64,000 bases of DNA from Falsiroseomonas algicola (GTDB lineage: Bacteria; Pseudomonadota; Alphaproteobacteria; Acetobacterales; Acetobacteraceae). The stretch's first letter is position 1. Every line of letters begins with the position of its first letter. The position numbers and the translations under genes were made by a program. The notes below the pieces were generated by a model. It ran no database searches, was not told the DNA's origin, and was given only the letters and a program-made list of their open reading frames with translations. The stretch covers positions 558,001 to 622,000 of the forward strand of contig NZ_JAAIKB010000002.1 in assembly GCF_011040385.1 (NCBI RefSeq), written 5' to 3'. Positions 3,401 through 34,105 of this stretch are shown piece by piece.

Positions 3401-4128
3401 TAGGCGCGGTCGCGATCGCTCGGCTGCGGCAGGCGCCGCGCATGGTCGGCGAAGCGCGCGGCGGGTGGTGGCGACACCGCATCCGGCGCGGCGTAAAGCG
3501 CGCCCCAGTCGCGGAACAGCGTGACCAGCGCGGCCGCATCCGCCAGCAGCAGGTCGATCCCGACGCCGAGCCGCACCCGCCCGTCCGGCAGCAGCGCGGC
3601 CTTCAGCGAGAAGAGCGGCCAGGCCTGCGGGTCGAAGACGTGGTGTGAGCGCGTCTCCCGCTCCGCCGCCAGCACGGCCCCGGCATCGGCGGCCTCGCGC
3701 AGGTCGATGCGCTCGATCGTCACGCGCGGGACCTCCGGCAGCACGCGCTGGCGGCCATCGGGCGTGACGACGGCGCGCAGCATCGGGTGGCGCGCGACCA
3801 GGCGATTCCAGGCTTCCTCCAGCCGGTCGAGGTCGATGCTGTCGGATTCGAATTCGCGGTAGGCGTGGCAGCCGACGCGGCCGAGTTCGAGTTCGGCCGA
3901 GCGGCCGACCAGATAGGCCTGCTGGATCTCCGTCAGCGGGAAGGGCTCGTCGGCGGGCGTGTCATCGCCGCGCAGCAGGGCGAGGATCGCCGCCTTCTCT
4001 GCCCGCAGCCGGTCGCGATCGGCTTCCGTCAGCACGCCGCGCGGCGCGCGCAGCGAGACTTCGTCGCCGCTGACGGAGAGCGTGACGCCGCGGCGTTCCA
4101 GGTCCTGCAGGAAGGCGGCGGTGGTCAC
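409..4128 (-). CDS. NRPS module: TubC-type docking, heterocyclization (Cy), adenylation with truncated inserted oxidase, PCP
   Basis: This 1,239-residue protein starts at a GTG in a GTGA overlap with the PKS4 stop; an open frame further upstream is out-of-frame reading of PKS4. Residues 1-60 look like a TubC-type docking domain. A Cy domain follows (about 65-490; FPLTEIQQAYLVGR and DLLLADAAA in place of the usual DxxxxDxxS). The A domain has A3 near residue 640 (YTSGSTGQPKG), A8 near 895 (KIQGYRIELGEIE) and A10 near 1122 (LPLSANGKVDR). The pocket motifs FDLSVWD, WNSVP, MMSGDW and GGATEAAIW resemble the cysteine code, so it likely makes a Cys-derived thiazoline. Between A8 and A10 lies a shortened McbC/SagB-type FMN oxidase-like segment (about 960-1085) lacking the central part of such domains. 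The PCP serine is in GATSLHMV near 1175. Whether the ring is oxidised to thiazole is uncertain. Confidence 0.93.
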   Translation of the reverse strand: MTTAAFLQDLERRGVTLSVSGDEVSLRAPRGVLTEADRDRLRAEKAAILALLRGDDTPADEPFPLTEIQQAYLVGRSAELELGRVGCHAYREFESDSIDLDRLEEAWNRLVARHPMLRAVVTPDGRQRVLPEVPRVTIERIDLREAADAGAVLAAERETRSHHVFDPQAWPLFSLKAALLPDGRVRLGVGIDLLLADAAALVTLFRDWGALYAAPDAVSPPPAARFADHARRLPQPSDRDRAYWQARLADFPPGPDLPLLPVAGPPRFTRRTHRIPAAEWQALRAAAAARGITASVLLATALADALAGWSRRSRFAITLTQFAAPPGMEGVVGDFTSTILLEADVTPPRFEDRARALQARLAADLDHASMSGVAVLREIRRLRPEAAAVPVVFTSTVGHPSLGGATSPLAWLGETVFAVTQTPQVVLDHHVFEEAGALVLGWDAVEAAFPPGVLDALVAAQAGLLAALLSGEGWTRDASACRPSQPRASLTEAAPPRLLHVALEEAARATPDRPAVIDAERVLDHATLHAAAGHLAATLRERLGGETRNRLVAIVLPKGWRQVVAVLAVLKAGAAYLPVDPALPSERRRHLIAQGEALPIKDPADIDAALAAAHQGPPPALPAIDDPSRLAYVIYTSGSTGQPKGVMIEHQAAVATVDEINRRWAIGAEDRAFGLSALGFDLSVWDIFGPLAKGGAVVLPPPEAARDPGAWAALLARHRVTVWNSVPALMAMQMEHGLPVGHALRLVMMSGDWVPVELVRRLQAALPQAALVALGGATEAAIWSNAHEIGALDPAWPSIPYGLPLAGQMLHVVDARGAPCPDWVTGEIEISGAGLARGYWRDPVRTAERFVTNPFTGERRYRTGDLGRFRPHGDGTGPTPIEFLGREDFQVKIQGYRIELGEIEAALESHPEVAASCATVVEGPGGKALHAFVAPRRESWDRARRVLCRPGLRRDGTARLPLPHRASEESYDTRRTIRRFTEATPPPAALEAVVAAAGMPVTVLNRAEAGWPGIAIPDPATARVAAAAGALLLLEAPRSRTALLAAGRAGQRMMQAAEAQGLGLCAIGLLLKDGAPVLHAFACGVPATEVAGIDLAGALREHCAALLPAYMVPRHLHLLESLPLSANGKVDRAALKPPSQETAAPAGATESGVAALVAEALGQAVASQRNLFDAGATSLHMVRLQRLLAERMGSRLSVVDLFRLPSIAAIAGALAGEAAEGAVQGGLDRAARRRAAQRR

Positions 4129-7100
4129 AGCGTCAGCACCTCCGTCTCCTCCGCCTCGGCCTCGATCCGCGCGGCCAGCGTTTCGGCATCGGCGCCGCCG
4201 AGCAGGTCCGCCAGGCCGAGCGCGGTGCCGAAGCGCCGGTTGATGCGGTTGCGCAGGTCCATGGCCATGAGGCTGTCGAGCCCGCAGGCGACGAGGGCGC
4301 GGCCGGGGGGCGGCACCTCGCCCAGGATCTGGCGGATGAGGTCCGCGACCTGGTCCCGCACCGGGCCGTCGCTCATCGTGGTGGCGGGCAGCAAGGGGGC
4401 GAAGGCGGGCGGGGCGGTTTCGGCGAAGCGCGCCCAGTCGAAGGCGGCGATCATCACCGCGGGCTCTTGCGACAGGATGGCGGCGTCGAGCGCGGCCATG
4501 GCGCGATCCGGCGCCATGGGCAGCAGGCCGCGGGCGGAGACGCGCGTCGCGCGGGCGGCGTCGAGCGCCGCGGCCATGCCGACCTCGGCCCAGCGGCCCC
4601 AGAGGATGGATTGCGCGGGCAGGCCCTGCGCGCGCCGCTGCAGCGCGAAGGCATCGAGCGCCGCATTGGCCGCGGCATAGCCCGCCTGGCCGGCGGCGCC
4701 GATCACGCTGGCGACGGAGCCGAAGAGCAGGAAGTGCTCGGGCCGCTGCGGCAGCGCGTGCAGCGCCTGGGCGCCGACGAGCTTCGGCGCGATCACGCGC
4801 TGCATCCGGGCCTCGGTCTGGTCCTCGATCATCGCGTCGTCGAGCACGCCGGCGGCATGGATGATGGTGTGCAGCGGCGGCATGCCGGACAGCGCCTGCG
4901 CGATGCGGGCGGTGGCGTCGGGGGCGGCGATGTCGCAGGCCAGCACGCGTGCCTGCGGGAAGGGCGCCTCGGCCGCGGTGCGGCCGATGAGCAGCAGCGC
5001 CTGCGCCCCCCGGTCCAGCGCCCAGCGCGCCGCCTGCCGCCCGATGCCGCCAAGGCCGCCGGTGATGAGCACGGTGCCGGAGAGTGCGACCTGGCCGCCG
5101 GGGGGATCGATCCGCGCGAGGCGCGGCACGAAGCGGCCCTCGGCGCGCAGCATCACGGAGGGTTCTGCGCCATCGCCCTCGAGTTCCGCGCGCAGCAGCG
5201 CCGGTGGCGCATCGGGCGCGACAGTGATGGCGCGGGCGCGCAGTTCCGGGCGTTCCGCCGCCAGCGCGGTGGCGAGGCCATGCAGCTGCGCCTGGCATCC
5301 GGTGCCGCGCGTGACGAAGGCCAGCGGCGCGGGCGGGCTCAGCGACCGGTGCACCAGCGCCAGCGCCTGGCCGAGGCTGGGATCCTCGATCGCCGTGGCG
5401 GGCGGCCCGGGTGCGGGCGGGGGCGCGGGCACCCAGGACAGGGCGGCCAGCACCGGCGCGGCCTGCGCCTCCGCCAGGCGGCGGATGGCGAGGCCGTGGA
5501 TGGACGCGATGGGGGCATCGCCGGTTGCCAGCAGGTCGATGACCTCGCCCTGCCGCCGTGCGGTGACGGTGAGCGGGCCGGCGAGCGGCGCATGCAGGTC
5601 GAGCCGCGCGATGCCGATGGGCAGCACGGGTTCCGCCGGCAGCGTGCCGCCTGCCGCTTGCAGCACGGCGTCGAGCAGCGCGGGGTGGAAGGGCGCGCCG
5701 GGGATGGCGGGCAATGCCTCGATCGTCGCCTGCGTGGTCTCGCCACGGGCGATGCGGGCGATGCCCTGGAAGGTCGGGCCGATATCGATGCCGAGCGCGG
5801 CCAGATGCGCGATCCAGGTCGCGCGGGTGTCGGTGGTTTCGGTCAATGGCGCGGCAAGGGCCAGCGGCGCGGCCGGCACGGCGACCCGCGCCGTCGCGTG
5901 CGACAGCCAGCCCGAGCCGGCGCGGGAGGCGACGCGGAGTGCTCCATCGGGCTCGCCCAGCGCCACCAGGCGCACCGACGCCGCTTCCAGCACCACCGGC
6001 TCCGCGAAGGCGATGTCCGCCAGCGCCGTCGTGCCGGGCGGCGCGGCGGCCAGCAGCAGCGCGATCATGACCGCACCCGGCACGACGATGCGGCCCTGCA
6101 CGCGGTGGTCTGCCAGCCAGGGCAGCAGCGCCAGGTCAAGCACCGCCTCCACCTGCCGCGCCGCCGCGGGGCTGTCGATCACGCGGCCGGGGAAGAGTGC
6201 CGTCTCCGGCGCCGCGGCGCGGAGGCGCGGAAAGACCTGGCGGCTCAGCGGCACCGGCAGCAGGGGCGCGCGGCGGGCGGGCAGCGCGGGCGGCGCTTCC
6301 AGCACCAGATGCGCATTGGTGCCGGAGAAGCCGAAGCCGCTGACGCCGACGCGCTTCGGCGCCTCGGCCAGCAGCGCCGTCGGCACCTCTATCGGCGCGG
6401 CGCCGAGATCGACATGCGGGTTGAGGCGCCTGAAATGCAGGCTCGCCGGCACCGCGCCGCGATCCAGCATCAGCACCGCCTTGATGAGTCCCGCGATACC
6501 CGCCGCGGCGGCGGTATGCCCGATATTCGTCTTGAGCGAACCGACGCGCAGCGGCTGCGTGCGGCCCTGGCCGAAAACGGCGGCCAGCGCGTGCAACTCC
6601 ACGGGATCGCCCAGCGCCGTGCCGGTGCCATGCGCCTCGATCGCGTCGATATCGGCGGGCGCCAGGCCGGCATCGGTCAGCGCCGCGCGGATCACCGCCT
6701 GCTGCGCGCCAAGGCTCGGCGCGGTGATGCCGGCGCTGCGGCCATCCTGGTTCAGCGCGGCGCCGCGGATGACGGCCAGCACCGGATCGCCCGCGGCTTC
6801 CGCATCGGCCAGGCGCTTCAGCACCACCATGCCGCCGCCCTCGCCCTGGCCGAAGCCATCGGCGCTGGCATCGAAGGCCTTGCAGCGGCCATCCGGCGCC
6901 ATCATGCGTGCGCGGCTGAGCGCGATGGAGACCTGCGGCGCCAGCATCAGATGCGCGCCGCCTGCCAGCGCCATGTCGCATTCCCTTGCCCGCAGCGCCT
7001 GCACGGCGAGATGCGTGGCGACGAGGGAGGAGGAGCAGGCGGTATCCACCACCAGGGCGGGGCCGTTCAGGCCCAGCGCATAGGCGATGCGCCCCGCGGC

Positions 7101-7640
7101 CAGCGACGCGACCGCGCCCGCCAGCGCATGCGTGCCGAGCCGCGCCGGGTCCGTCATCACGGCCTGGAGGTGATCGCCGGCATTGAGGCCGAGGAAGACG
7201 CCGGTCGCGCTGCCACTCAGCGCATCGGGTTTCAGCGCCGCGGCTTCCAGCGCTTGCCAGGCGAGTTCCAGCAGCAGCCGGTGCTGCGGGTCCATGCCCG
7301 CGGCTTCCCTTGCCGCAATCCCGAAGCGGGCTGCGTCGAAGGCATCGACATCGGTGATGAAGCCTCCCTCGCGGAAGGTGATGCGGCCGGGCGCGTCGGG
7401 ATCGGCCGAATGCCAGGCCTCGGCGTCCCAGCGATCGGCGGGAATGGGCCCGACGGCGTCGCGGCCCTGCGCCAGCAGGTCCCACAGCGCGGCGGGCGAG
7501 TCGGCGCCTGGGAAGCGGCAGGCCATGCCGATGACGGCGATCGGCGTGTTGCGCGCGGCGGAGAGTTCGTCCACGCGCCTGCGCAGCGCCTGGATCGTGC
7601 GCACCGCCTCCCGCATCCGGTCCTCGGGGGCGAGGCTCAT
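4125..7640 (-). CDS. Type I PKS module KS-DH-KR-ACP without AT (PKS4)
   Basis: A 1,171-residue single module. Residues 1-32 form a charged helix (REAVRTIQALRRRVDELSAA) like the class 2 N-terminal docking helices of cyanobacterial and myxobacterial PKSs. The KS is intact (DTACSSS near residue 201, EAHGTGTAL, NIGHTAAAAG). No AT follows. A DH lies near 500-720 with HRVQGRIVVPG matching HxxxGxxxxP and HPALLDAVLQ as second motif. The KR has GGLGGIG near 862 and retains the catalytic Ser and Tyr (FGSVAS ... GYAAAN). The ACP has CGLDSL near 1120. It should add an alpha,beta-unsaturated two-carbon unit once an extender is supplied in trans. The acidic tail (EAEAEETEVLTL) may be the short motif that binds the TubC-type domain of the next protein. 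The start overlaps the PKS3 stop by 4 bases (ATGA). Confidence 0.93.
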   Translation of the reverse strand: MSLAPEDRMREAVRTIQALRRRVDELSAARNTPIAVIGMACRFPGADSPAALWDLLAQGRDAVGPIPADRWDAEAWHSADPDAPGRITFREGGFITDVDAFDAARFGIAAREAAGMDPQHRLLLELAWQALEAAALKPDALSGSATGVFLGLNAGDHLQAVMTDPARLGTHALAGAVASLAAGRIAYALGLNGPALVVDTACSSSLVATHLAVQALRARECDMALAGGAHLMLAPQVSIALSRARMMAPDGRCKAFDASADGFGQGEGGGMVVLKRLADAEAAGDPVLAVIRGAALNQDGRSAGITAPSLGAQQAVIRAALTDAGLAPADIDAIEAHGTGTALGDPVELHALAAVFGQGRTQPLRVGSLKTNIGHTAAAAGIAGLIKAVLMLDRGAVPASLHFRRLNPHVDLGAAPIEVPTALLAEAPKRVGVSGFGFSGTNAHLVLEAPPALPARRAPLLPVPLSRQVFPRLRAAAPETALFPGRVIDSPAAARQVEAVLDLALLPWLADHRVQGRIVVPGAVMIALLLAAAPPGTTALADIAFAEPVVLEAASVRLVALGEPDGALRVASRAGSGWLSHATARVAVPAAPLALAAPLTETTDTRATWIAHLAALGIDIGPTFQGIARIARGETTQATIEALPAIPGAPFHPALLDAVLQAAGGTLPAEPVLPIGIARLDLHAPLAGPLTVTARRQGEVIDLLATGDAPIASIHGLAIRRLAEAQAAPVLAALSWVPAPPPAPGPPATAIEDPSLGQALALVHRSLSPPAPLAFVTRGTGCQAQLHGLATALAAERPELRARAITVAPDAPPALLRAELEGDGAEPSVMLRAEGRFVPRLARIDPPGGQVALSGTVLITGGLGGIGRQAARWALDRGAQALLLIGRTAAEAPFPQARVLACDIAAPDATARIAQALSGMPPLHTIIHAAGVLDDAMIEDQTEARMQRVIAPKLVGAQALHALPQRPEHFLLFGSVASVIGAAGQAGYAAANAALDAFALQRRAQGLPAQSILWGRWAEVGMAAALDAARATRVSARGLLPMAPDRAMAALDAAILSQEPAVMIAAFDWARFAETAPPAFAPLLPATTMSDGPVRDQVADLIRQILGEVPPPGRALVACGLDSLMAMDLRNRINRRFGTALGLADLLGGADAETLAARIEAEAEETEVLTL

Positions 7641-10600
7641 GCGCTGGCGCCCAGGCTCGCGCCGGCGGCGCCGAGTTCCGCTTCCAGCAGCGCCGCCAGC
7701 TCATCCTCCTCCATCGCATCCAGCGCATCGCCAGTGGCGGCGGGCAGGAGATCGGCGAAGACGGTGGCGCCGAGATGCCGCGCCAGCGCGTCGCAACTTG
7801 GATGCTCGAAGACGAGGGTGGCGGGCAGCTTCACCTCGCAGGCCGCAGCGAGCGCGTTGCGAAGCTCCACCGTCATCAGCGAATCGAGGCCGAGTTCGCG
7901 GAGCGGCGCCTCGGCCGGCGGCAGCGTGCCGGCGGCGAGGCCGAGGATGCGTGCGACGGTGTCGCGCACCGCGGCGAGCAAAAGCGCGGCGCGCTCGCCC
8001 TGGGGCGCGTCCTGCAGTCGGTCCCGCAGCGTCGTGGCGGTGGGCTGGCTGGGCGCGGCGTCGGATGTTGCGGCCGCCGCGGTGGTCGTGCGGAAGCGCG
8101 GGAAGACGGGCGGCACCGGGTGCGGCGCGAAGCGGGCGAGGAAGCGGCCCCAATCCACGTCGAGGATGCCGAGCGTGGCCTGCTCCGCCGAGAGCGCCAG
8201 GCCGAGCGCGGCCAGCGCCTGGTCCGGCGCCATCGGCAGCAGGCCGCGCCGGGCCACGCCGGCGCCGGCCCGCGCGGCCGCACCGATTTCGTCCCAGGCG
8301 CCCCAGGCGATGCTGAGCGCGGGCAGGCCCTCCGCGCGCCGTGCTTCCGCGATCGCGTCCATCGCCGCATTGGCGGCGGCGTGGTTGGCCTGGGCGGCGG
8401 AGCCGAGCAGCGCGGCGGAGGAGGAGAAGAGGACGAAGTGGCGCGGTGGGAGGCGACGCGTCAGCCGGTCCAGCAGCCGCGCGCCTTCCAGCTTCGGGCG
8501 CAGCACGGCCGCCATCTTAGCGGGGGTCTGCTGGGCCAGGAGTCCGTCATCCAGGATCCCGGCGGCGTGCATGATGCCGATCAGCGGCGGGCCTTCGTGC
8601 TCGATCCGTGCGAGGAGAGCGGCGAGCACCGCTTCATCCGCCACGTCGCCGATCACGGTCGTGACGCGCACATCGGGCGGGAAGGCGCCGATGTCGTGCG
8701 GCGTACGGCCGAGCAGCACGAGATGCGAGGCGCCCTGATCCGCCAGCCAGCGCGCGACGGCGAGGCCGACGCCAGCAAGGCCGCCGGTGACGAGCCAGGT
8801 GCCCTCCACCCGCAGGCTGGGCGCGGCTTCGGGGGCATGCAGGCGATCGAGGCGCGCCAGGTGGCGGTGGCCCTGGCGCCAGGCAATCCGCGTCTCCGCC
8901 GTGCCGGCGGCGACTTCGCGGTCGAGCGCCGCGGGATCATCGGAATCGACGAGCGTGAGGCGAAGCTCCGGCGCCTCGATGGCCAGGGCGTTGGCGAGGC
9001 CCCAGAGCGCGGCCTGGGCGGGATCGGGGGCGTCGCCGGCGGTGATGGCGCGCGCGCGGTCCGTGCCGATCCAGATGCGCGGCGGGCTGGGGCGCGATGC
9101 GGCCTGTTGCAGGATGGGCAGCGCCCCGGCCAGCACGGCCTCTGCATTGGCGCCGCGGGGGGCGCGCCAGACGATGTCAGTGGTAGCGCGGGCGCGGCGC
9201 GCGACCAGCACGAACTGACCGCTGAGTGCCGCGGTACGGGCATCGCCGGGCTGATGGGCCTGCGCGACGAAGCCCAGCTCCGCCAGCAGCGCGACCCAGG
9301 TCGGCGGCGGCAGCAGCGCATGGCCGGGGCGGAGATCGGTGTCGGCGAAGGCCCACATGCCGTCGGTCAGGCCGAAGGTGAGGTCGCCCCAGGCCAGCTC
9401 GCCGGCATTCTCCACCAGCAGCAGCGCGCCCTCCTCCGCAAGCAGAGAGGCCGCGTGGCGCAGCGTGCGCCGCAGGTCAGGCGTGGCGTGCAGGACATTG
9501 GCGGCGACGACGATGTCCACGACGCCTGTCGCGGTGGGTGGCGCGCTGATGTCCAGCACCTCGCCTTCGAGCCCGAAGCGGCGGCGCGCGGCTTGCACGA
9601 AGGCGGGAGAGACATCGGTGACGCGGTAGCTGTCCCCCGCGCGCAGCCGCGGCAGCAGGGCCTGCGTGGTGCCGCCGGTGCCGCAGCCGATCTCCAGCAC
9701 GCGCGCGGCGCCACGGCCTTCGAGCAGCTGGGCGAAGGCGGCGGCGGCGATGCCGTTGACGGCGCGCGCGGCGGGGGAGGCGGCGTAGAGCGCTTCCGCC
9801 GCCGCGCCGCCATCGCCGAAGAGCAGGTCGAGCGGATCGGCGCGGCCTTCCAGCACGGCGCGGAGATGCGGGCCGCTGCGGGCGAGCAGCCGCGCCTCCG
9901 GCAGGTCCGGCACCGGCAGCGTCGCGGGGTCTTCCGTGTTGGCGGCGATGCGCAAGAGATGCGCGTGCAGGCGCGCGAAGCGCGGCGCGGGCGTGCAATC
10001 CGCAAGGCGCGCGGCGCCGATCCAGGCGCGGGCCAGGCGGTCCGTGGCGGCCGCGGCGTCTTCAGCCTCCGCAAGCAGGGCTGCGCCTTCCGCCACGGCC
10101 TTCGCGACGGGATCGGGCTGCCAGGTCAGGTGGTGGAACCAGCCGCGCCAGGGCTCCGCCTGTTCCCATCGATCCGGCGCGGCCAGGCGCGCGCGGTTGG
10201 CGGCGAGCAGGCGCGTGAGCGGCGCCGTCGCATCCTGCCGTGCGACCAGCAGCACGTAGCGCATCACGCCCCGTCGCAGCGCGCGGCCGATATTGTCGTT
10301 GGAGAGCAGGTGGCGGCGCGTGAGGTCCGAGAGGCCATGCTGCGCGACCAGGCGATCAACCTCGGCCTCGAAGCCGGGATCGTCGAGGAAGTGCGCGACC
10401 TCGGCGCTGGTGTCCACGCAATCGGTCAGGCGCAGGCCGCGTTCCGCAAGCAGGCGCGCCCATTCCTCCGCGGTGGAGGTGAAGGAGGCCGTGTCGGGCG
10501 CGGCGATGCCATCGCCGGCGGCGACGAAATCGGCGATGACGAGGGCCCCGCCGGGCTCCAGATGGTCCCGGATATTATCGAAGAGGCCGGCCTTGTCCTC

Positions 10601-13600
10601 GATGAGGCCCGAGACCTCGACGCCGAAGATCACGTCATAGCGGCCCGGGAAGGGGTCGCGCGCGCTGTCGCGGTGATGGATGCGGACGCGATCGGAGAGG
10701 CCGGCGCGGGCGGTGCGGGCACGGCCGACCTGCACCTGCTCGGCGGAGATGGTGCAGCCATCGAGGCGGAGATGCGGGTGGCGCAGCGCGATGTCGCAGA
10801 GATCGGCGGCGTGGCCACAGCCGAAGTCGAGCACGCGGCGCGCGCGGTTGAAGTCGATGGGTGCGAAGATCGCCTGCTTCAGCGCGTGCTGCGCGCGGCG
10901 GAGCAGCGCGTAGCCGTCGGGCTCCGACGGGCCGGCGAAGAGTGCGCGGAGCCAGGAGAAGCCGGCGCGCGGCGCGGGCATGAGGCCGAAGGTGAGATGC
11001 CCTTCGCTGCCATCGCCGGGATCGGCGTAGTGGCTCGCGATGGTGGTGAGCTCGTCATAGAAGCCGGTGACGCGAGCATCGCCGACTTCCGGCGCCGCGC
11101 GATCGGCGGTGTTGGCGACGGGACGGTCGAGCGTCGGGTCCGTGAGCCAGAACCGTTCGCGCTGGAACGGATAGGTCGGCGCGGAGGTGGCGCGCGTGGG
11201 GTAGGGCTGGTGGAAGGCGGGCCAGTCGATCTCCGCGCCGTCCTGCCAGAGGCGGGCCACGCCCTGCATCGCCGTGGTCCAGCCGAGCGTCGCGCCATCC
11301 TGCCCGGGCCGTGCCCGCGCCAGGGAGGGCAGCGTGACCAGCGCGGGCATGGCCGCGCGGGCGAAGCCGGACAGCACCGGCATGGCGCCGAGTTCGACGG
11401 CATGCGTCACGCCCATCGCGGCCAAGGTCGCGAGGCCCTGCGCGAAGCGGACGGGCTGCCGCGCATGGGCGCGCCAATAGGCCGCGTCGTGCCGCGCGAC
11501 GACGCTGCCCGCGAGGTTGCCGATGACGGGGATGGCGGGCGGGTTGTGCGGGATGGCGCGCGCCTCCGCTTCCAGCGCGTCCAGCATCGGGTCGAGCAGG
11601 CGCGAGTGGAAGGCGTGGGAGACGGCGAGGGGCCGCGCCTCCAGCCCCGTTTTCGCCAGCGCGGGATCGTCGAGCAGCGCGGCGATGGCGGCCTGCGGGC
11701 CGGCGACGGTGATGGCCTCCGGCCCGTTCTCGCCGGAGAGTTCCAGCGCGGGGTGGCGTGCGAGGATGGCCTGGCCGTTCGGCCCGAGCACCGCGGCCAT
11801 GGCGCCGCCGGCCGGCAGCGCCTGGGTGAGCCGCCCGCGGGTGGCGACGAGGCGCGCGGCATCCTCCAGCGCCAGCACGCCGGCGAGGTGGGCGGCGGCA
11901 TATTCGCCGAGGCTGTGGCCGAGCAGCGCCACGGGCTCCACGCCCCAGCTTCGCCACAGCGCGCCGAGGCCGGCGGAGAGGGCGAAGAGGGCGGGCTGGG
12001 CGATGTCGGCGCGGGCGAGGGCGGCGCCATCCTCGCAAAGGCGGGCGAGCGGCGCGGGCAGGCCCATCACGGCGTCGCAGCGGTCGAGCACGCGGCGGAA
12101 GACGGGGGCGGTCTCGGCCAGGCCGCGGGCCATGCCGGGGAAGGCGCTGCCCTGGCCGGTGACGAGGAAGGCGATGCGCGGGCGGGCGGCGGTGGTGGCC
12201 TGCGCGGTGGCCAGCGCCTGGGCGGCGGAGGCGGCATCGGACGCGACGATGGCGATGCGGCGGGGGAGGCTTGCGCGGCCGGTGGCGGCGGTGCGGGCGA
12301 GTGCGGGGAGGTCGGCGCCCGGCGTCGCCAGCGCCTCCTGCCAGCGCGCCACCAGCGCGCTCAGCGCGGCGGGATCGCGGGCGCTGAGGGGCAGCACCTG
12401 CGCGGGCCTCGGATCGACGGCGGGCTCGGTGGCAGGGGCGGCACCGAGCACGACATGGGCGTTGGTGCCGGAGAAGCCGAAGGAGCTGACGCCGATGTTC
12501 CGCAACGGCGCCGCTTCCAGCCGCGTCGGCACGGCGATGGCCGCACCGGTCAGGTCGATATGCGGGTTGAGGCGCGTGAAGTGGAGGCTCGGCGCCACCT
12601 GCTGGTGGCGGAGCATGAGCATGGCCTTGATGAGGCCGGCGATGCCGGCGGCGGCCTCTGTATGGCCGATATTCGTCTTGGCGGAGCCGACGGCCAGCGG
12701 GCGCGCACGATCACCGGCGAAGACGCTGCGCAGTGCATGCATCTCGATGGGATCGCCGAGCGCGGTGCCGGTGCCATGGGCCTCGATCGCGTCGATGTCG
12801 GCGGGCGACAGCGATGCATCGGCGAGCGCCGCGCGCAGGACGGCTTCCTGGGCGGGGCCGGAGGGCGCGGTGAGGCCGGCGCTGCGGCCATCCTGGTTGA
12901 CGGCGCTGCCATGGATGATGGCGAGCACGCGATCGCCCGCTGCGACCGCATCCGACAGGCGCTTCAACACGACAACGCCGCAGCCCTCGCCATGGGCGAA
13001 GCCGTCGGCGTTCGCATCGAAGGCGCGGCATCGGCTGGTTGGCGACGCGGCGCCGAGCTTGGCGCTGGCCACCAGCGGCAGCGGTGAGAGGATCAGGTGC
13101 ACGCCACCCGCCAGCGCCAGCGCGCATTCTCCTGCACGCAGCGACTGCACGGCGAGATGCACGGCCACCAGCGAGGAGGAGCACGCCGTGTCCAGCGCCA
13201 CCGCCGGCCCCGTGAGCCCCAGCCGGAAGGCGATGCGCCCCGGCGCGATGGAGGTATGCGTGCCGGAGGCCGACCAGGCGTTGATCAGCGACGCATCGGG
13301 CGACCCGCGCCCGATCAGCCCGTAATTGCTGTTGTAGAGCCCGAGATAGACGCCGCCCGCGACGCCATCGAGCCGGTCGGGCGCGATCGCTGCATCCTCC
13401 AGCGCCTCCCACGCGACTTCCATGACGAGTCGCTGCTGCGGGTCCATCGCCTCCGCCTCCCGCGGCGCGATGCCGAAGAAGGCGGCGTCGAAATCCTCGA
13501 TGCGGTCGAGAAGCGCAGCCTCCGCCTGGGTCGTCCGGCCCGAGGCTTCGGGATCGGCCGCCTGCCACGCCGCGTGGTCCCAGCGCCGGATCGGCTGCAC

Positions 13601-13711
13601 GGCATTGCCGCCGCGCGACAGGAACGACCACAGCGCCGCTGGGCCCGCGGCGCCGCCGGCGTAGCGGCATCCCATGCCGATGATGGCGATCGGCTCACGC
13701 CCAGCGGTCAA
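7637..13711 (-). CDS. Type I PKS module KS-AT-MT-MT-KR(inactive?)-ACP (PKS3)
   Basis: A 2,024-residue protein. I chose the TTG at 13711, which overlaps the PKS2 TGA and has a GGGGAGG ribosome site 9 bases upstream. Order: KS (about 5-425; DTACSSS), AT (about 500-815; GHSLGE near 597 and HAFHS near 697, the malonyl-CoA signature), a first methyltransferase (about 880-1200; motif I VLDFGCGHAADL), a second methyltransferase (about 1250-1510; VLEIGCGTGGTT), KR (GGLAGVG near 1640) and ACP (LGLDSL near 1942). The first MT resembles enol/O-methyltransferase domains of myxobacterial PKSs and the second the usual C-MT. The KR keeps Ser in FSSSAALLG but has His1777 where the catalytic Tyr of YAAAN belongs, so the beta-keto group is probably left unreduced. 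The C-terminus (AMEEDELAALLEAEL) is a class 2 docking helix matching the start of PKS4. Methyl positions are inferred. Confidence 0.93.
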   Translation of the reverse strand: MTAGREPIAIIGMGCRYAGGAAGPAALWSFLSRGGNAVQPIRRWDHAAWQAADPEASGRTTQAEAALLDRIEDFDAAFFGIAPREAEAMDPQQRLVMEVAWEALEDAAIAPDRLDGVAGGVYLGLYNSNYGLIGRGSPDASLINAWSASGTHTSIAPGRIAFRLGLTGPAVALDTACSSSLVAVHLAVQSLRAGECALALAGGVHLILSPLPLVASAKLGAASPTSRCRAFDANADGFAHGEGCGVVVLKRLSDAVAAGDRVLAIIHGSAVNQDGRSAGLTAPSGPAQEAVLRAALADASLSPADIDAIEAHGTGTALGDPIEMHALRSVFAGDRARPLAVGSAKTNIGHTEAAAGIAGLIKAMLMLRHQQVAPSLHFTRLNPHIDLTGAAIAVPTRLEAAPLRNIGVSSFGFSGTNAHVVLGAAPATEPAVDPRPAQVLPLSARDPAALSALVARWQEALATPGADLPALARTAATGRASLPRRIAIVASDAASAAQALATAQATTAARPRIAFLVTGQGSAFPGMARGLAETAPVFRRVLDRCDAVMGLPAPLARLCEDGAALARADIAQPALFALSAGLGALWRSWGVEPVALLGHSLGEYAAAHLAGVLALEDAARLVATRGRLTQALPAGGAMAAVLGPNGQAILARHPALELSGENGPEAITVAGPQAAIAALLDDPALAKTGLEARPLAVSHAFHSRLLDPMLDALEAEARAIPHNPPAIPVIGNLAGSVVARHDAAYWRAHARQPVRFAQGLATLAAMGVTHAVELGAMPVLSGFARAAMPALVTLPSLARARPGQDGATLGWTTAMQGVARLWQDGAEIDWPAFHQPYPTRATSAPTYPFQRERFWLTDPTLDRPVANTADRAAPEVGDARVTGFYDELTTIASHYADPGDGSEGHLTFGLMPAPRAGFSWLRALFAGPSEPDGYALLRRAQHALKQAIFAPIDFNRARRVLDFGCGHAADLCDIALRHPHLRLDGCTISAEQVQVGRARTARAGLSDRVRIHHRDSARDPFPGRYDVIFGVEVSGLIEDKAGLFDNIRDHLEPGGALVIADFVAAGDGIAAPDTASFTSTAEEWARLLAERGLRLTDCVDTSAEVAHFLDDPGFEAEVDRLVAQHGLSDLTRRHLLSNDNIGRALRRGVMRYVLLVARQDATAPLTRLLAANRARLAAPDRWEQAEPWRGWFHHLTWQPDPVAKAVAEGAALLAEAEDAAAATDRLARAWIGAARLADCTPAPRFARLHAHLLRIAANTEDPATLPVPDLPEARLLARSGPHLRAVLEGRADPLDLLFGDGGAAAEALYAASPAARAVNGIAAAAFAQLLEGRGAARVLEIGCGTGGTTQALLPRLRAGDSYRVTDVSPAFVQAARRRFGLEGEVLDISAPPTATGVVDIVVAANVLHATPDLRRTLRHAASLLAEEGALLLVENAGELAWGDLTFGLTDGMWAFADTDLRPGHALLPPPTWVALLAELGFVAQAHQPGDARTAALSGQFVLVARRARATTDIVWRAPRGANAEAVLAGALPILQQAASRPSPPRIWIGTDRARAITAGDAPDPAQAALWGLANALAIEAPELRLTLVDSDDPAALDREVAAGTAETRIAWRQGHRHLARLDRLHAPEAAPSLRVEGTWLVTGGLAGVGLAVARWLADQGASHLVLLGRTPHDIGAFPPDVRVTTVIGDVADEAVLAALLARIEHEGPPLIGIMHAAGILDDGLLAQQTPAKMAAVLRPKLEGARLLDRLTRRLPPRHFVLFSSSAALLGSAAQANHAAANAAMDAIAEARRAEGLPALSIAWGAWDEIGAAARAGAGVARRGLLPMAPDQALAALGLALSAEQATLGILDVDWGRFLARFAPHPVPPVFPRFRTTTAAAATSDAAPSQPTATTLRDRLQDAPQGERAALLLAAVRDTVARILGLAAGTLPPAEAPLRELGLDSLMTVELRNALAAACEVKLPATLVFEHPSCDALARHLGATVFADLLPAATGDALDAMEEDELAALLEAELGAAGASLGASA

Positions 13712-16700
13712 GACTTCTGCCCTCCCCACGGCGCCATCATGCGGGAGCCGGACGGCGGCTGCCAGTCCGAACCCATGATCACCAGGTTGCCTGCCTCGGT
13801 CGCCATGGCGGCATCGAAGGCCTGGAGCGCGATGGCGGGCGGCAGGGATGGCGCGCGGCCATGGTCCCATAGCGTCGCATCAGCGGCCATGCCGACGCCC
13901 TGCCAGGCGCACCAGGCGATGCAGCGCGCCGGAAAGCCCGCCTGCCGTCGCGCGGTGGCCACGGCCTCCAGCGCGCCATTGGCGGCAGCGTAGCCCGCGG
14001 TCCCCGGCAGCCCGAACCACGCCGAGGTGGATGAGAACAGGACGAGTTCGACCTCGCCCATCGGCCTTGTCGCCTCATCCAGCCACCGCGCGGCATCCGC
14101 CTTCGCCGGGAAGGCCGGCGCAAAGCGCGACCAGGTGGCGGTCGCGACGCGGCCATCGGCGGTGATGCCTGCCGCATGAATGACGCCGCGAAGCGGACCG
14201 TCGCGCTGGACATCGTCGATGAGGGCGAAGGTGGCGGCTCGGTCCGTCAGGTCGACACTCCTGGTCTCGACAACGGTGCCCGGCAGGTCGAAGGGCGTGG
14301 GGCGACGACTGGCGACGACGATGCGCGAAGCGCCGCGCGCCGCGAGATGGGCGGCGGTGTGGCGTCCGATGCCACCGCTGCCGCCTGTGATGAGCCAGGT
14401 TCCGCCGGGCGAGGGTTGCTGCGCCGGAACACCGCCTGCCGGACGCAGGCGCAGCGCCTCCCTCCGCCGCGGCAGCAGGCGGGTGCGCGGCTCTCCATCG
14501 GTCGTCGCCAACTCGCGCCGCAGCGCCTCCGCGGGATCGGGGAGGGCGGGGTCGAGCCGTATGGTGCGCAGCGCCCATAGGGGCTCTTCCGCGGCCACTG
14601 CGCTTGCGAAGGCTTCGAGAAGCGGCGCGAGCGGAGACGCCGAGGGCACGGCGATCGCGATGCGCGCCGCTCTGCCGGACAGTGCCTGGAGACGCGCCAG
14701 CAGGGCCGGCATCACCGCCTCCCGCAGCGCCGCCGGATCCCCTGCGTTGCTGCCCAGTGCGGAGACGTCGAGCAGCGAGGTCGTCTCTCCCTCACCCATG
14801 GCGGTCCGCAGGGCCTCGGCGATGGGGCCCTCGCCGGCAATGGTCCAGCCGCGCGCCAGACTGGCTGGCGCGGCGATCGGTTCCCAGACGGGCGCCAGCA
14901 GGGCAAAGCGACCTGCCTTCGGCGCTGTCGGGACCTGGGCACGCGCCAGGCTGGCAGCAGCCTGGACGAGATTGGGATGGCTGTAGGCGAAGTCGGGCCG
15001 GATCGGGCGTCCGAGGCGCTGCGACAGCGCCCGCGCGAAGTCGACGGCGGTGAGCGAGTCCATGCCGAGCGCGGTGAGCGGTGCCTGTGGGTCCAGCATC
15101 GTCGGATCCGGCGTGCCGAGCAGCGGCGCCAGGATGCCCTGCAGCAGCGCGACATCGATGATGGCCGGCGCTGCGGGTTCGATGGCTGGGGCGGAGGCCG
15201 GCGCTGCCATGTCGATGACGACGCGCCGCGCTTCCGGTGACGCCAGCAGCGCCGGCAGGGCGCGCAGGCCCATCGCGGGCAGGATGGGGGTGACGCCGAA
15301 GGCCTTCCAGGTCGCGGCGGCGCGCTGGCCCATGCGGGCACCGATGCCAGCCGCCCAGGGGCCCCAGGCCAGGGCCAGGGCGGGCAGGCCATCGCGCCGA
15401 CGCGCCTCCGCCAACTGGTCGATGGCGGCATTCGCGGCGGCATAGGCTCCTTGGCGCGCGGAGGGCAGGACACCCACGACGGAGGAGAAGACGACGAAGG
15501 CGGAGAGCCGCACGCCGTGGCGGCGCGTCGCCTCGTCCAGCGTCCGGGCGCCGCCGAGCTTGGCGCGCAGCACGGCGGCGATGCGCGCCTCCGTCAGCGC
15601 TTCCAGTGCATCGTCATCGGTGATGGCGGCGGCGTGGATGATGCCGCGGAGCGGCGTGGCATCATCGGCGAGGCGCCCCACCAGCGGATCGATAAAGCCG
15701 GCATCGGCGACGTCGCCCTGCGCGGTGCAGGCGCCCGCCGTCGGGCTCACGTCCACGCGGCAGGCGATGGCGCCCTGCGCCTCCAGCCAGTCGGCGACCA
15801 TGCGGCCGAGGCCGCTCGCCGCGCCGGTGACGATCCACCGTGTGCCGGGTTCAACGGTGAAGCGGGGCGGCGTGCCCAGCATCACCACTGTCCGGCCCGG
15901 CAGCGACGAGGCGGCAAGCGCATCGCCGAGCGCGTCGCGTTGGATGGGGTGGCGCGGCAGCGGCGGCAGGTCGCGGAGTCGCGCGAAGAGCGCGGCCAGC
16001 CGATCCTCGGGCACCGCATCCAGGTCGAAATGCCCGGCAGCCCGCTTGTCCAGGTTCACGACCGGGATCGGCGCCAGCCTGGCCGCGACCTCCGGCGGGA
16101 AGGCGCCGAAGGCGAGGTCAATGCCCCGCAGGTCCCAGCCTTCCGGCGCGCGGCTGTCGAGCACGGCGGTGATGCCGCGGCGCGCAAGCCAGGCGTGGCG
16201 GGGCCTGCTGGCTGTCGCGACGATGGTGGCGCCGGCGCGGCGCAGCACCTCGATGGCGGCGAGGCCGGTCGCGCTGCTGGCCTGGTGGACCAGCACCCTG
16301 GTGCCAGGCGCTACGGGCGGCAGGGAGGCCAGGGCCGTCAGGTAGGGAACCGGCATGGTCGCGGCATCGAGGAGGTCGGCGCAGGGTGCATGTGCGACGC
16401 GTGCCGCCGGCACGGTCACGCGGTCGGCGATCGCGCCCGGCGCCAGCAGGATGACGGCGTCGCCTGGCGCGAAGCCGTGGACGCCCTCGCCGACCGCCTC
16501 GACGATCCCCGCGCCATCGGCGCCGAGTGTGCTGCCAATCGGGGCAAGGCCGCCGGCCAGCAGCCGGTCGCGGAAGGTGAGGCCGGCAGCCACCATGGCG
16601 ATGCGGAGTTGGCCGGGGCCTGGCGGCGGGGCACTGGCCGAAATCCAGCCGAGGCGGCCATCGCGCCATGCCGCGGCGGTGTCGGCGCCCGTGTGCCGGG

Positions 16701-31051: not shown

Positions 31052-32911
31052 TTGGATGTCATCCGGTCCCGCCGCAACGCCGCCACGACGCTCGTGGCGT
31101 TGGAGCCCCGCCAGCCCGAGCGTGAATTTCCGCCCGATCTGGATTCGATCGTCCCGACCCCGTTGGCGTCGGGCCGGCCCTCCAAACCCATTCGCATCGA
31201 GCCTCTGCCCCCGGCTTCCCGGTTCCGGGGGCTGGCCGTGTTCGCCGCGCTGCTTCGCTTCGTCGGCCTGCGCCTCTGGTTGCGCGCGACGGGGCGAATG
31301 ACGGCGACGCGGGATGCCGCGCTGGCCCGGGAACTCTTCGAACGCCTCAGCGGCATGTGGATCAAGGCCGGGCAACTCCTCTCTCTGCGCACGGACCTCC
31401 TCACGGATGAGATGTGCGAAGCGCTCTCCAGCCTGCAGCACCGCGTCGCAGGCTTCCCGCCCGAGGTCGCGATGCAGGTGGTGGAGGAGGATCTGAGCGT
31501 ACCCATCTCCCGGGTCTTTTCCTCCTTCGAACCCATGCCCTTCGCGGCGGCCTCCATCTGCCAGGCCCATCGCGCGACGCTGCTGGAGAACAACCGCGCG
31601 GTCGTCGTGAAGGTCATGCGGCCGGATGTGGCGCGGAGTTTCGCCCGCGACCTTGGGCTGCTGCGGGGCCTGGTGGCGGTGTTCAGCGTGCTCGGCATCG
31701 GCAGCCGCTTCCACCTGGTGGATGGCTTGCGCGAGCTGCGCGCGGTGCTGAGCGAGGAGACCGACTACCGCTTCGAGGCCGTCAACCTGAAGCGGATGCG
31801 GCGCAACCTGCGCCGGCACAAGGTGTCCGTGCCCCGGGTGCTGTCACGCTATTGCGGTCCGCGGATGCTGGTGATGGACGAGATCCCCGGCGTGCTGATG
31901 TCGCACTACATCCAGATGCGCAGTGAGAACATCGCCGCCGTCCGCCGATGGGAGCATGAGAACAACGTCGATCCCCTGAAGCTCGGCAAGGCGCTGATGG
32001 TGACCGTGCTGCGCCAGATCCTGGAGGACAACGAGTTCCACGCCGACCTGCACCCCGGCAACATCATGATCATGGCGGACAACCGCATCGCGCTGCTGGA
32101 TCTTGGCAGCGTGGGACGGCTGGACCGCCGGACCTGGCAACTCTACCGCTACACCATGGGGGCGCTGGCGACGCGAGACTTCGAACGGGCCGCGGACTAC
32201 ACGCTGTTGCAGCAGCCGGGCCTTGGCGTGGTCGATCATGCAAGGCTGCGCAGCGACCTGGCGGAGGCGCTGCGTCGATGGGAACTGCGCAGCGAGTTCC
32301 CGAACACTTCCTACGCCGACAAGTCGGTGGCTTCCATGGGCGATGAGATCACCCGCGTGATGGCCAGGCACAACGTCCCGGTGGGCTGGGGGCTGATGCG
32401 GGTCGGGCGCGCGCTGTCCACGCTCGATGCCTCGTTGCAGGTGCTGGTCCCGGACGGCAACTTCATGGAGTTCACGCGGGCCTACTTCAAGGATCGCATG
32501 CGGCGGCAGCGGACGCTGAAAGGCGCGATGCGCCCGCTGAAATCGGCGCTGCAGGACGTCATGGGCCTCGCCAATGATGCCAATGTGGTCCTGGGCTCCG
32601 CCGTGCGGTTTCAGGGGCTCCGCCTGCAGGGCATGGCGGACCGCGTGCAGCAGTTCCGCCTCGCGGTGCTGAAGGTCTTCAACCGCGGGATCTGGACGCT
32701 CATCCTGTTCACGCTCGGCATGATGCTGCTCAGCCGGTACATCGACCATCTGCCGGTAGCGTGGCGGCCGCCGGCAGAGCGGCTGCTGCAATTCGTGCTG
32801 GAGCCGCTGCCTGACCTGGATGGCATCTACTGGCTGCTCTTCCTGGCCGTGGCGCTGTTCATCTCCAACGTGTTGCGGACGGCGCGGAAATCCCTGTCGG
32901 CGACCCAATAG
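31052..32911 (+). CDS. ABC1/UbiB (COQ8-like) family atypical kinase
   Basis: A 619-residue membrane-anchored atypical kinase. Family signatures are all present: the KxGQ motif (WIKAGQLLSLRTDLL, Lys105), the Ala-rich loop (AAASICQAH), ExD (SEETDYRFEAVN), the catalytic loop HADLHPGN (His330) and DLG in place of DFG (LLDLGSVGRL). Two C-terminal hydrophobic segments (IWTLILFTLGMMLL and YWLLFLAVALFISNVL) match the usual UbiB membrane anchor. Family members support ubiquinone biosynthesis or act as ATPases on lipid substrates. No ubiE or ubiJ lies beside it, so it is probably not the canonical ubiB; three COQ4-like genes lie 4.4-9 kb downstream. The first usable codon seen is TTG at 31052; an upstream ATT or CTG start is possible. 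Confidence 0.93.
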   Translation: MDVIRSRRNAATTLVALEPRQPEREFPPDLDSIVPTPLASGRPSKPIRIEPLPPASRFRGLAVFAALLRFVGLRLWLRATGRMTATRDAALARELFERLSGMWIKAGQLLSLRTDLLTDEMCEALSSLQHRVAGFPPEVAMQVVEEDLSVPISRVFSSFEPMPFAAASICQAHRATLLENNRAVVVKVMRPDVARSFARDLGLLRGLVAVFSVLGIGSRFHLVDGLRELRAVLSEETDYRFEAVNLKRMRRNLRRHKVSVPRVLSRYCGPRMLVMDEIPGVLMSHYIQMRSENIAAVRRWEHENNVDPLKLGKALMVTVLRQILEDNEFHADLHPGNIMIMADNRIALLDLGSVGRLDRRTWQLYRYTMGALATRDFERAADYTLLQQPGLGVVDHARLRSDLAEALRRWELRSEFPNTSYADKSVASMGDEITRVMARHNVPVGWGLMRVGRALSTLDASLQVLVPDGNFMEFTRAYFKDRMRRQRTLKGAMRPLKSALQDVMGLANDANVVLGSAVRFQGLRLQGMADRVQQFRLAVLKVFNRGIWTLILFTLGMMLLSRYIDHLPVAWRPPAERLLQFVLEPLPDLDGIYWLLFLAVALFISNVLRTARKSLSATQ

Positions 32912-33013
32912 TTCGCCGGGCGCGGCCGCGGTCGGGGCTGCAAGCCGCTTCAAATTCGTGCTATCTTCCGTAAGGTTTCACGGTTGCCGTGGCCGTGCAG
33001 AGGATGGATCGGC

Positions 33014-34105
33014 ATGCCGTCGCGACTCGTCATCGCAAGCGTATCCGCCCTGGCCGGCCTTGTGGGTGGTGCCGTCGTTGCGCGCTACGCGTGGCCGGCG
33101 ATGGGCACGACGCCGACCGCACCGTCCCGCGTGGCCGCGGCGGAACCGGCGCCGGCATCGGTCGAGGTCGCTCGCGCGACCCGGGGGCGGGTGGAGCAGG
33201 CGCTGAACTCGCTCGGCACGTTGCAGGCGCGGGAAAGCGTGCCTGTCGCGTCGCTCAATCCGGGCATCGTCACGGCGATCCACTTCCAGGAGGGCAGCCG
33301 GGTCGAGGCCAATGCCCTGCTGGTTGACCTCGACCAGCGCATCGCGCGCGCCAACCTGGCCTCGGCGGAGACGGAGCTGCGCGCGGCGCAGCTTCGCTTC
33401 GAACGCAGCCAGCAATTGTCGGGGTCGGGCTTCCGGTCCCGCCAGCAACTGGATGACGACCGGGCTTCGATCGACCGTGCCGCGGCGGAGGTAGCGGTGC
33501 GCCAGACCCAGCTGGCGCAGCTGAGCGTCCGCGCGCCCTTTGCCGGCATCCTGGGCCAGCGCGAATTCGGCCTCGGCGAATACATCGAGGCCGGCAAGCG
33601 TCTGGTGATGATCGAGGACCGGTCGGTGCTGCGGGTCAACTTCCGGGTGCCGGAGCGGTTCCTGCCGCGGCTCGCGATCGGCCAGTCGGTGGAGCTGACG
33701 CTGGATGCGGTGCCGGGCCGCCGCTTCACCGGCCGCGTCACGCTGCTGGATGCGAGGCCGGGGACCAATGACCGGGACATCCAGGTCCGGGCGGAGATTC
33801 CGAATGACCCGCCCGTGCTGCCCTCCGGGCTTTTCGCACGCGTCCGCCTGGTGATCGAGAGCCGGGCGGACGCGATCGTCGTGCCACCTTCCGCCGTGCT
33901 CTACACGCTGACGGGCGCCTATGTGTTCAAGGTGGAGGATGGCCGCGCCCGACGGACGCCGGTGCGCGTTGGGTTGCAGCTCGCGGATCGCGTGGAGATC
34001 GTCCAGGGGCTCGATGCCGATGACCAGGTGGTCACGGCCGGGCAGTTCAACCTCGACGACGGAAGGCGGGTGACCATGATGGCCCGGACGCCGGGCCAGC
34101 GCTGA
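33014..34105 (+). CDS. RND efflux periplasmic adaptor (HlyD/MFP family)
   Basis: A 363-residue membrane-fusion protein. The N-terminus has a single hydrophobic anchor (SRLVIASVSALAGLVGGAVV), followed by a lipoyl half-motif (VASLNPGIVTAIHFQEGSRV), a coiled-coil hairpin (SAETELRAAQLRFERSQQL ... IDRAAAEVAVRQTQLAQL), the second lipoyl half (VRAPFAGILGQREFGLGEYI) and beta-barrel and membrane-proximal domains. I chose ATG 33014 (AGAGGATGG upstream), giving a normal inner-membrane anchor, over an upstream in-frame start. Its stop TGA shares a base with the permease ATG, so the pair is co-translated. It links an inner-membrane pump to an outer-membrane channel; no TolC-like gene lies in the window. 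Confidence 0.94.
   Translation: MPSRLVIASVSALAGLVGGAVVARYAWPAMGTTPTAPSRVAAAEPAPASVEVARATRGRVEQALNSLGTLQARESVPVASLNPGIVTAIHFQEGSRVEANALLVDLDQRIARANLASAETELRAAQLRFERSQQLSGSGFRSRQQLDDDRASIDRAAAEVAVRQTQLAQLSVRAPFAGILGQREFGLGEYIEAGKRLVMIEDRSVLRVNFRVPERFLPRLAIGQSVELTLDAVPGRRFTGRVTLLDARPGTNDRDIQVRAEIPNDPPVLPSGLFARVRLVIESRADAIVVPPSAVLYTLTGAYVFKVEDGRARRTPVRVGLQLADRVEIVQGLDADDQVVTAGQFNLDDGRRVTMMARTPGQR

What the first reader, a model, noticed from the sequence alone, without database searches (positions are those of the whole stretch)
7637..13711. Tandem methyltransferases next to a KR with Tyr replaced by His: likely alpha-methyl-beta-methoxyacrylate unit
PKS3 holds two MT domains in a row: DFGCGH type (motif near residue 962) and EIGCGTG type (near 1340). 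They precede a KR whose catalytic Tyr is His1777 (CAC at 8381-8383, reverse strand) while its Ser is kept. An unreduced beta-keto group that is C-methylated and enol-O-methylated would give a beta-methoxyacrylate-like unit, as known from the myxothiazol and melithiazol type of myxobacterial PKSs. The residues are read directly; the O- versus C-assignment and product are inference. The unit is internal here, not at the chain end.
Basis: partly seen in the sequence, partly recalled or inferred. Interest (0 to 1): 0.78.

Follow-up and report, generated by a model that had tools for sequence, protein, structure and literature searches.

The report
Doubly methylating polyketide module with His-ketoreductase
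One station of a bacterial chemical assembly line carries two methyl-adding domains and a reductase whose usual catalytic tyrosine is a histidine; related enzymes suggest the reductase still works, so the product is more likely a methoxy-methyl unit than the fungicide-like methoxyacrylate first proposed.

Summary
PKS3 (window 7637-13711, minus strand, 2024 aa) is KS-AT-MT1-MT2-KR-ACP, and His1777 (8381-8383) replaces the KR tyrosine.

The methoxyacrylate reading is not favoured. MT1 keeps Glu1032, linked in print to beta-hydroxy O-methylation; beta-keto enzymes have Gln. The KR keeps its NADPH motif, Lys, Ser and Asn, is under purifying selection, and has His in 7 of 7 orthologous modules.

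In a survey, 33 of 130 module KRs had His, all 33 in modules with a C-MT before the KR; no other residue replaced Tyr there. 25 of the 33 belong to this cluster and its relatives; in unrelated lines with C-MT before KR it was His 8, Tyr 9. 23 of the 33 modules keep a dehydratase with both catalytic residues. One His-KR lies in a CyrB-like protein whose proposed pathway needs that reduction.

Best reading: C-methylation, reduction by an unorthodox but active His-KR, then O-methylation, giving a saturated alpha-methyl-beta-methoxy unit. Reductase activity is inferred, not shown. New variant of a known kind.

The parts
7637..13711 (-). PKS3, KS-AT-OMT-CMT-KR(His)-ACP, 2024 aa, TTG start overlapping the PKS2 stop (TTGA)
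12431..13693 (-). KS domain
11282..12181 (-). AT domain (one of three cis-ATs in the line)
10238..11062 (-). MT1, StiD/StiE-type O-methyltransferase
10616..10618 (-). Glu1032, aligned with the Glu of StiD/StiE (that this is the catalytic Glu is inferred from the LynB2 pocket numbering in PMC10127204)
9221..9886 (-). MT2, CurJ-type C-methyltransferase; His1408 and Glu1434, 26 residues apart (dyad assignment recalled)
8255..8803 (-). KR catalytic subdomain (Lys1740, Ser1764, His1777, Asn1781; LDD motif)
8381..8383 (-). His1777 codon CAC at the KR tyrosine position
7769..7981 (-). ACP (Ser1944)
13870..14403 (-). extra C-terminal KR (Tyr) of the preceding protein PKS2, candidate to reduce the PKS3 intermediate in trans
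4125..7640 (-). PKS4, next module KS-DH-KR(Tyr)-ACP without AT; ATGA overlap with PKS3

Best explanation
PKS3 is one chain-extension module. After condensation, MT2 methylates the alpha carbon at the beta-keto stage. The KR then reduces the beta-ketone with NADPH, using His1777 in place of the usual tyrosine as proton donor or relay with Ser1764 and Lys1740. MT1 O-methylates the resulting beta-hydroxyl. The unit passed to PKS4 is a saturated alpha-methyl-beta-methoxyacyl group. Shown by sequence: domain order, MT family membership, Glu1032, the conserved His and the otherwise intact KR site. Inferred: extender unit, order of steps, KR activity, His as catalyst, product.
For: MT families. Glu1032 in 7 of 7 orthologous modules. 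Glu/Gln rule and MtaE/StiD versus MtaF/LynB2: PMC10127204 passages. His survey: of 130 module KRs, those with C-MT before KR had His 33 and Tyr 13; KR directly before C-MT, Tyr 26; others Tyr 57, Asn 1; dereplicated to 114: 21/13, 26, 53/1. Of the 21 dereplicated His-KRs, 21 keep Lys, 20 keep Ser (one Thr), 14 keep Asn. 23 of 33 His-KR modules have a DH with catalytic His and Asp, and 6 also an ER; outside this cluster's relatives it is 6 of 8. dN/dS of the PKS3 KR catalytic subdomain is 0.14-0.26 over five comparisons; the Tyr-KRs of the line give 0.12-0.32 over the two nearest genomes. L057, a CyrB-like protein beside an annotated glycine amidinotransferase, has a His-KR; the review PMC2885083 (passages) proposes that the CyrB KR and DH act on the product of its MT-bearing module.
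Against: No assay, product or structure; structure prediction never ran. Loss of Tyr normally means an inactive KR (recalled; title of Xie 2016 seen in a reference list); tetromadurin KR14 lacks Tyr where the carbon stays a ketone, though KR12 also lacks it where the product has a hydroxyl, cause unclear (PMC7489565 passages). 25 of the 33 His-KRs come from this cluster and its relatives; in unrelated lines Tyr (9) is as common as His (8) after a C-MT. 7 of 21 His-KRs also lost the Asn (5 Ser, 1 Cys, 1 Ala), and the NADPH motif is altered in a few, most in G342. The KR structural subdomain of PKS3 evolves faster (dN/dS 0.22-0.58; 50-53% identity in the three distant orthologues). The Glu/Gln rule is weakly tested here: 17 of 18 PKS O-MTs had Glu, and no LynB2- or MtaF-type sequence was available. 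The tree-based independence test had 3 usable pairs and no power. L057 was matched to CyrB by layout and recalled gene sizes, not by sequence, and the CyrB pathway is a proposal.
Confidence: 0.66

Rival explanations
1. One reading: the His-KR is dead, the beta-keto group is C-methylated and its enol O-methylated by MT1, giving an internal alpha-methyl-beta-methoxyacrylate unit.
For: Tyr is absent; inactive KRs often lack Tyr (e.g. tetromadurin KR14); beta-keto O-methylation by a member of this broad O-MT family is experimentally shown (LynB2, PMC10127204 passages).
Against: MT1 has Glu, not Gln; the published methoxyacrylate modules MtaF, CtaF and HliF lack a KR; in the survey only His replaces Tyr after a C-MT; KR catalytic subdomain under purifying selection; four sister His-KR modules keep DH and one of them also ER, which need a hydroxyl.
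Confidence: 0.17
2. The His-KR is only structural and the hydroxyl is made in trans by the extra Tyr-KR at the C-terminus of PKS2; MT1 then methylates it.
For: PKS2 ends KR-ACP-KR, its last KR has the full Lys-Ser-Tyr-Asn set and lies directly before PKS3; the layout is kept in G004, G006 and G746.
Against: None of the other four His-KR modules of the line has a spare KR in its own or the adjoining protein; the extra KR is less conserved (72% between G000 and G004) than the PKS3 His-KR (90%).
Confidence: 0.12
3. The His-KR is a slow or partial reductase, or an epimerase-only domain, giving mixtures at this carbon.
For: His is a plausible but non-standard donor (inference; no call bears on it).
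Against: No direct evidence either way; DHs kept in most His-KR modules argue for efficient reduction.
Confidence: 0.05

Closest known systems
MtaE / CtaE (myxothiazol, cystothiazole), KS-AT-MT-KR-ACP
   Same: O-MT and KR in one module; O-MT said to act on beta-hydroxy and to keep the Glu (PMC10127204 passages)
   Different: No second MT is described for them there; PKS3 has a C-MT and a His-KR.
StiD / StiE O-MTs (stigmatellin; PDB 6ect, 6ecu, 6ecv, 6ecw, 6ecx)
   Same: MT1 matches over nearly its full length with the same Glu
   Different: PKS3 carries a C-MT between the O-MT and the KR
CurJ C-MT (PDB 5thy, 5thz)
   Same: MT2 is its relative, with the aligned His and Glu
   Different: In PKS3 it is paired with an O-MT
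MtaF / CtaF / HliF / LynB2 O-MT modules (methoxyacrylate or methyl vinyl ether)
   Same: Broad O-MT family
   Different: No KR described there, and Gln in place of Glu in LynB2, MtaF and CtaF; PKS3 has both a KR and Glu

Membership tests
StiD/StiE-type PKS O-MT | Sequence match to the solved StiD/StiE domains | tested here: met
   E down to 2.6e-67
StiD/StiE-type PKS O-MT | Catalytic Glu | tested here: met
   rule from PMC10127204
StiD/StiE-type PKS O-MT | Methylates a beta-hydroxyl | not testable with these tools
   needs an assay
CurJ-type C-MT | Sequence match to the CurJ C-MT | tested here: met
   3.3e-39
Methoxyacrylate-forming O-MT module (MtaF/LynB2 type) | Gln at the Glu position | tested here: not met
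   Glu1032
Methoxyacrylate-forming O-MT module (MtaF/LynB2 type) | Module without a KR | tested here: not met
   KR present, (whether it is active is the open question)
Canonical active PKS KR | Lys-Ser-Tyr-Asn tetrad | tested here: not met
   Tyr is His1777; the other three kept
Canonical active PKS KR | NADPH motif | tested here: met
Canonical active PKS KR | Ketoreduction | not testable with these tools
   needs an assay

The most novel reading that the evidence does not exclude
KRs that directly follow a C-MT include a recurrent functional class in which His replaces Tyr as catalytic acid. The weaker or differently tuned donor could hold back reduction so that alpha-methylation happens first, making the KR itself the timer of methylation. 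Rules that call such KRs inactive would then mispredict many products.
Probability: 0.4. Interest if true: 0.78.

Novelty: new variant of a known kind. Interest (0 to 1): 0.6.

Why it matters
The catalytic tyrosine is the standard sign of a working ketoreductase. If a group of C-methylating modules uses histidine instead, predicted structures of many polyketides would be wrong at those carbons (keto or methoxyacrylate instead of hydroxyl, alkene or methoxy). It would also open a testable idea for how modules make methylation precede reduction.

Tried and rejected
Dead-KR reading: weakened by the survey, the DHs and Glu1032, not excluded. Sequencing error: rejected, the His is in 7 of 7 orthologous modules. 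Single origin of His: the tree needs 10 changes of the label over 114 rows, and starred branches force at least 3 against the Tyr C-MT KRs, so gains or losses recur; direction is unknown, and the Tyr/His column itself was not left out of the tree. Sign test on independent pairs: 3 pairs, no power. Fisher test on the dereplicated table (21/13 versus 0/80, p 2e-14) ignores kinship and is not used as proof. Glu/Gln rule as an internal control: 17 of 18 O-MTs had Glu, so it discriminates little here; the one Gln (G373) was not followed up.

Survey limits: of 38 plasmid records with a C-MT match, 24 were read; the 14 left were duplicates, records of crop or human germs, and some Streptomyces and Bacillus records. 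The first four of the 24 were fetched from a query that included a His-KR; all four records are also in the C-MT-only list, but the Janthinobacterium module read is not that list's best place. Genome searches scored at most 7 candidates per genome, so counts there are lower bounds. Rows dropped before counting: KR matches under 120 aa and lone SDR genes (8). Loci L112-L117 were used for the O-MT check only.

Yersiniabactin HMWP1 and microcystin McyG/McyD would be yardsticks with known products; they were not fetched. Literature on a His-for-Tyr KR; I saw the listings and passages of two listed papers (PMC7489565, PMC13324335), nothing on point; the other papers were not opened. Tandem O-MT/C-MT in print: listing only. 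Papers with the recalled DOIs of the StiD and CurJ structure work are not held. Searches (Roseomonas, polyketide, thiazole; DET69, cylindrospermopsin) gave no paper. Structure of the KR: never ran.

Full report
WHAT IS THERE. PKS3 is the third of a run of minus-strand genes joined by four-base start/stop overlaps (ATGA, TTGA, ATGA, GTGA, ATGA), which suggests one translationally coupled operon. Its own start is TTG at 13711. Pfam and profiles built here give KS-AT-MT1-MT2-KR-ACP. The line continues about 40 kb beyond the window start to C22:518119. In biosynthetic order, assuming gene order, it is: ACP, KS-AT-CMT-KR, KS-DH-ER-KR, KS-(degenerate DH, ER)-KR-ACP-KR, PKS3, KS-DH-KR, Cy-A-T, KS-DH-CMT-ER-KR, KS-DH-CMT-KR, KS-DH-ER-KR, KS-AT-DH-CMT-KR, KS-DH-CMT-KR with three ACPs, Cy-A-T-TE and a last MT.

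THE METHYLTRANSFERASES. MT1 matches the solved stigmatellin O-MTs StiE and StiD almost end to end (2.6e-67, 1.8e-65). MT2 matches the CurJ C-MT (3.3e-39), then fungal and DisA C-MTs, with His1408 and Glu1434 26 residues apart, the spacing I recall for the catalytic dyad of fungal C-MTs. PMC10127204 (passages read) states that StiD, StiE, MtaE and CtaE act, or are postulated to act, on beta-hydroxy groups and keep a catalytic Glu, while LynB2, BarF, JamN, MtaF and CtaF act, or are postulated to act, on beta-keto groups and have Gln. MT1 has Glu1032, as do 7 of 7 orthologous modules. In a wider set 17 of 18 PKS O-MTs have Glu. Nine of the 18 sit in KS-OMT modules without a KR of their own; in the five of these where the preceding module can be seen, it has a KR. 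Calothrix has KS-AT-OMT-KR with Glu and a Tyr-KR. So the rule fits these but is not strongly tested by them.

THE KETOREDUCTASE. The window line has 11 KRs: His in 5 of the 6 that follow a C-MT, Tyr in the 5 others. To see whether this is local, C-MT modules were gathered from the window's phylum (7 of 398 genomes with a match, own genome included), family (11 of 397) and plasmids (38 records, 24 read), by similarity to a C-MT of this line. With neighbouring modules and the orthologues this gave 130 module KRs: C-MT before KR, His 33 and Tyr 13; KR directly before C-MT, Tyr 26; others, Tyr 57 and Asn 1. After dereplication to 114: 21 and 13; 26; 53 and 1. Of the 33, 25 belong to this cluster and its relatives (G000, G004, G006, G013, G746, L037-L039); the other 8 are Nostoc C052, Dolichospermum, Gloeocapsa, Janthinobacterium, G342, G492, G508 and G742. 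Of the 13 Tyr, 4 are one module type of this cluster and 9 lie elsewhere. Among the nine plasmid records with C-MT before KR, His is in 4 and Tyr in 5. The His organisms span Pseudomonadota and Cyanobacteriota. The tree puts Nostoc C052 (His) beside Nostoc ATCC 53789 (Tyr) with support 99/98, in the same AT-DH-CMT-KR layout, so the two residues interchange in otherwise equal modules.

IS THE HIS-KR ALIVE? For: only His replaces Tyr in these C-MT modules; of 21 dereplicated His-KRs all keep Lys, 20 Ser and 14 Asn, and the NADPH motif is mostly intact; 23 of 33 modules keep a DH with catalytic His and Asp, and 6 an ER, and in the 8 unrelated lines 6 keep such a DH; the PKS3 KR catalytic subdomain has dN/dS 0.14-0.26 (five comparisons) against 0.12-0.32 for the Tyr-KRs of the line (two genomes). 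L057 carries an annotated glycine amidinotransferase next to a protein with adenylation, ACP, KS-AT-DH-CMT-KR(His)-ACP; that is the layout of CyrA/CyrB, and the gene sizes agree with what I recall. The review PMC2885083 (passages) proposes KR and DH action in CyrB, which also carries an MT. Against: no assay; Tyr loss usually inactivates; 7 of 21 also lost the Asn, and the NADPH motif is altered in a few; the structural subdomain of the PKS3 KR evolves faster (0.22-0.58); similar domains share ancestry, so counts are not independent, and the formal test had no power; Tyr is as common as His in unrelated C-MT modules. DH domains in the line vary in constraint (0.18-0.47).

CONCLUSION. The module most likely makes an alpha-methyl-beta-methoxy, saturated unit: C-methylation, reduction, O-methylation. 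The absence of a DH fits, since the hydroxyl is to be capped, not eliminated. The published methoxyacrylate modules MtaF, CtaF and HliF lack a KR. An O-MT and a C-MT in one KR-bearing module is not among the four PKS module types listed in PMC2613160 of 2008 (passages), and I found no paper on a His-for-Tyr KR in the held library (listings and a few passages); most subscription papers are not held, so neither is claimed as unpublished. Named records with a close MT1 relative are Roseomonas ponticola, Falsiroseomonas stagni and MAGs labelled Acetobacteraceae, Rhodospirillales 69-11, Rhodopila and Proteobacteria; the first two and the Acetobacteraceae MAG have the contig lengths of G006, G004 and G013.

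Noticed in passing
window 409-29381 and L005-L007: Only three modules of the line carry an AT (PKS1 first module, PKS3, P0008); no separate AT gene was found in the cluster. The genome has six PF00698 matches in all, so the AT-less modules must be loaded from neighbours or a distant AT.
   Followed up: partly
window 13870-14403: PKS2 ends in an extra KR after its ACP, kept in G004, G006 and G746; its own DH and ER look degenerate.
   Followed up: partly
L005:1119-12230 (P0009): Last protein has three closely similar tandem ACPs, Cy-A followed by a nitroreductase-like stretch (likely oxidase, giving thiazole), a TE and then a C-MT-like domain after the TE.
   Followed up: partly
L006:2311-8322 and window 7637-13711: P0008 and PKS3 are 83% identical over PKS3 residues 3-873, KS-AT, a sign of recent duplication or gene conversion.
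   Followed up: no
window 31052-37176: A UbiB/ABC1-like kinase gene and an RND efflux pair (HlyD-like, AcrB-like) stand beside the cluster on the plus strand; export or self-protection is possible.
   Followed up: no
L116 (G373 C79): A divergent PKS O-MT with Gln at the Glu position after two ACPs in a trans-AT-like line, possibly of the beta-keto type.
   Followed up: no
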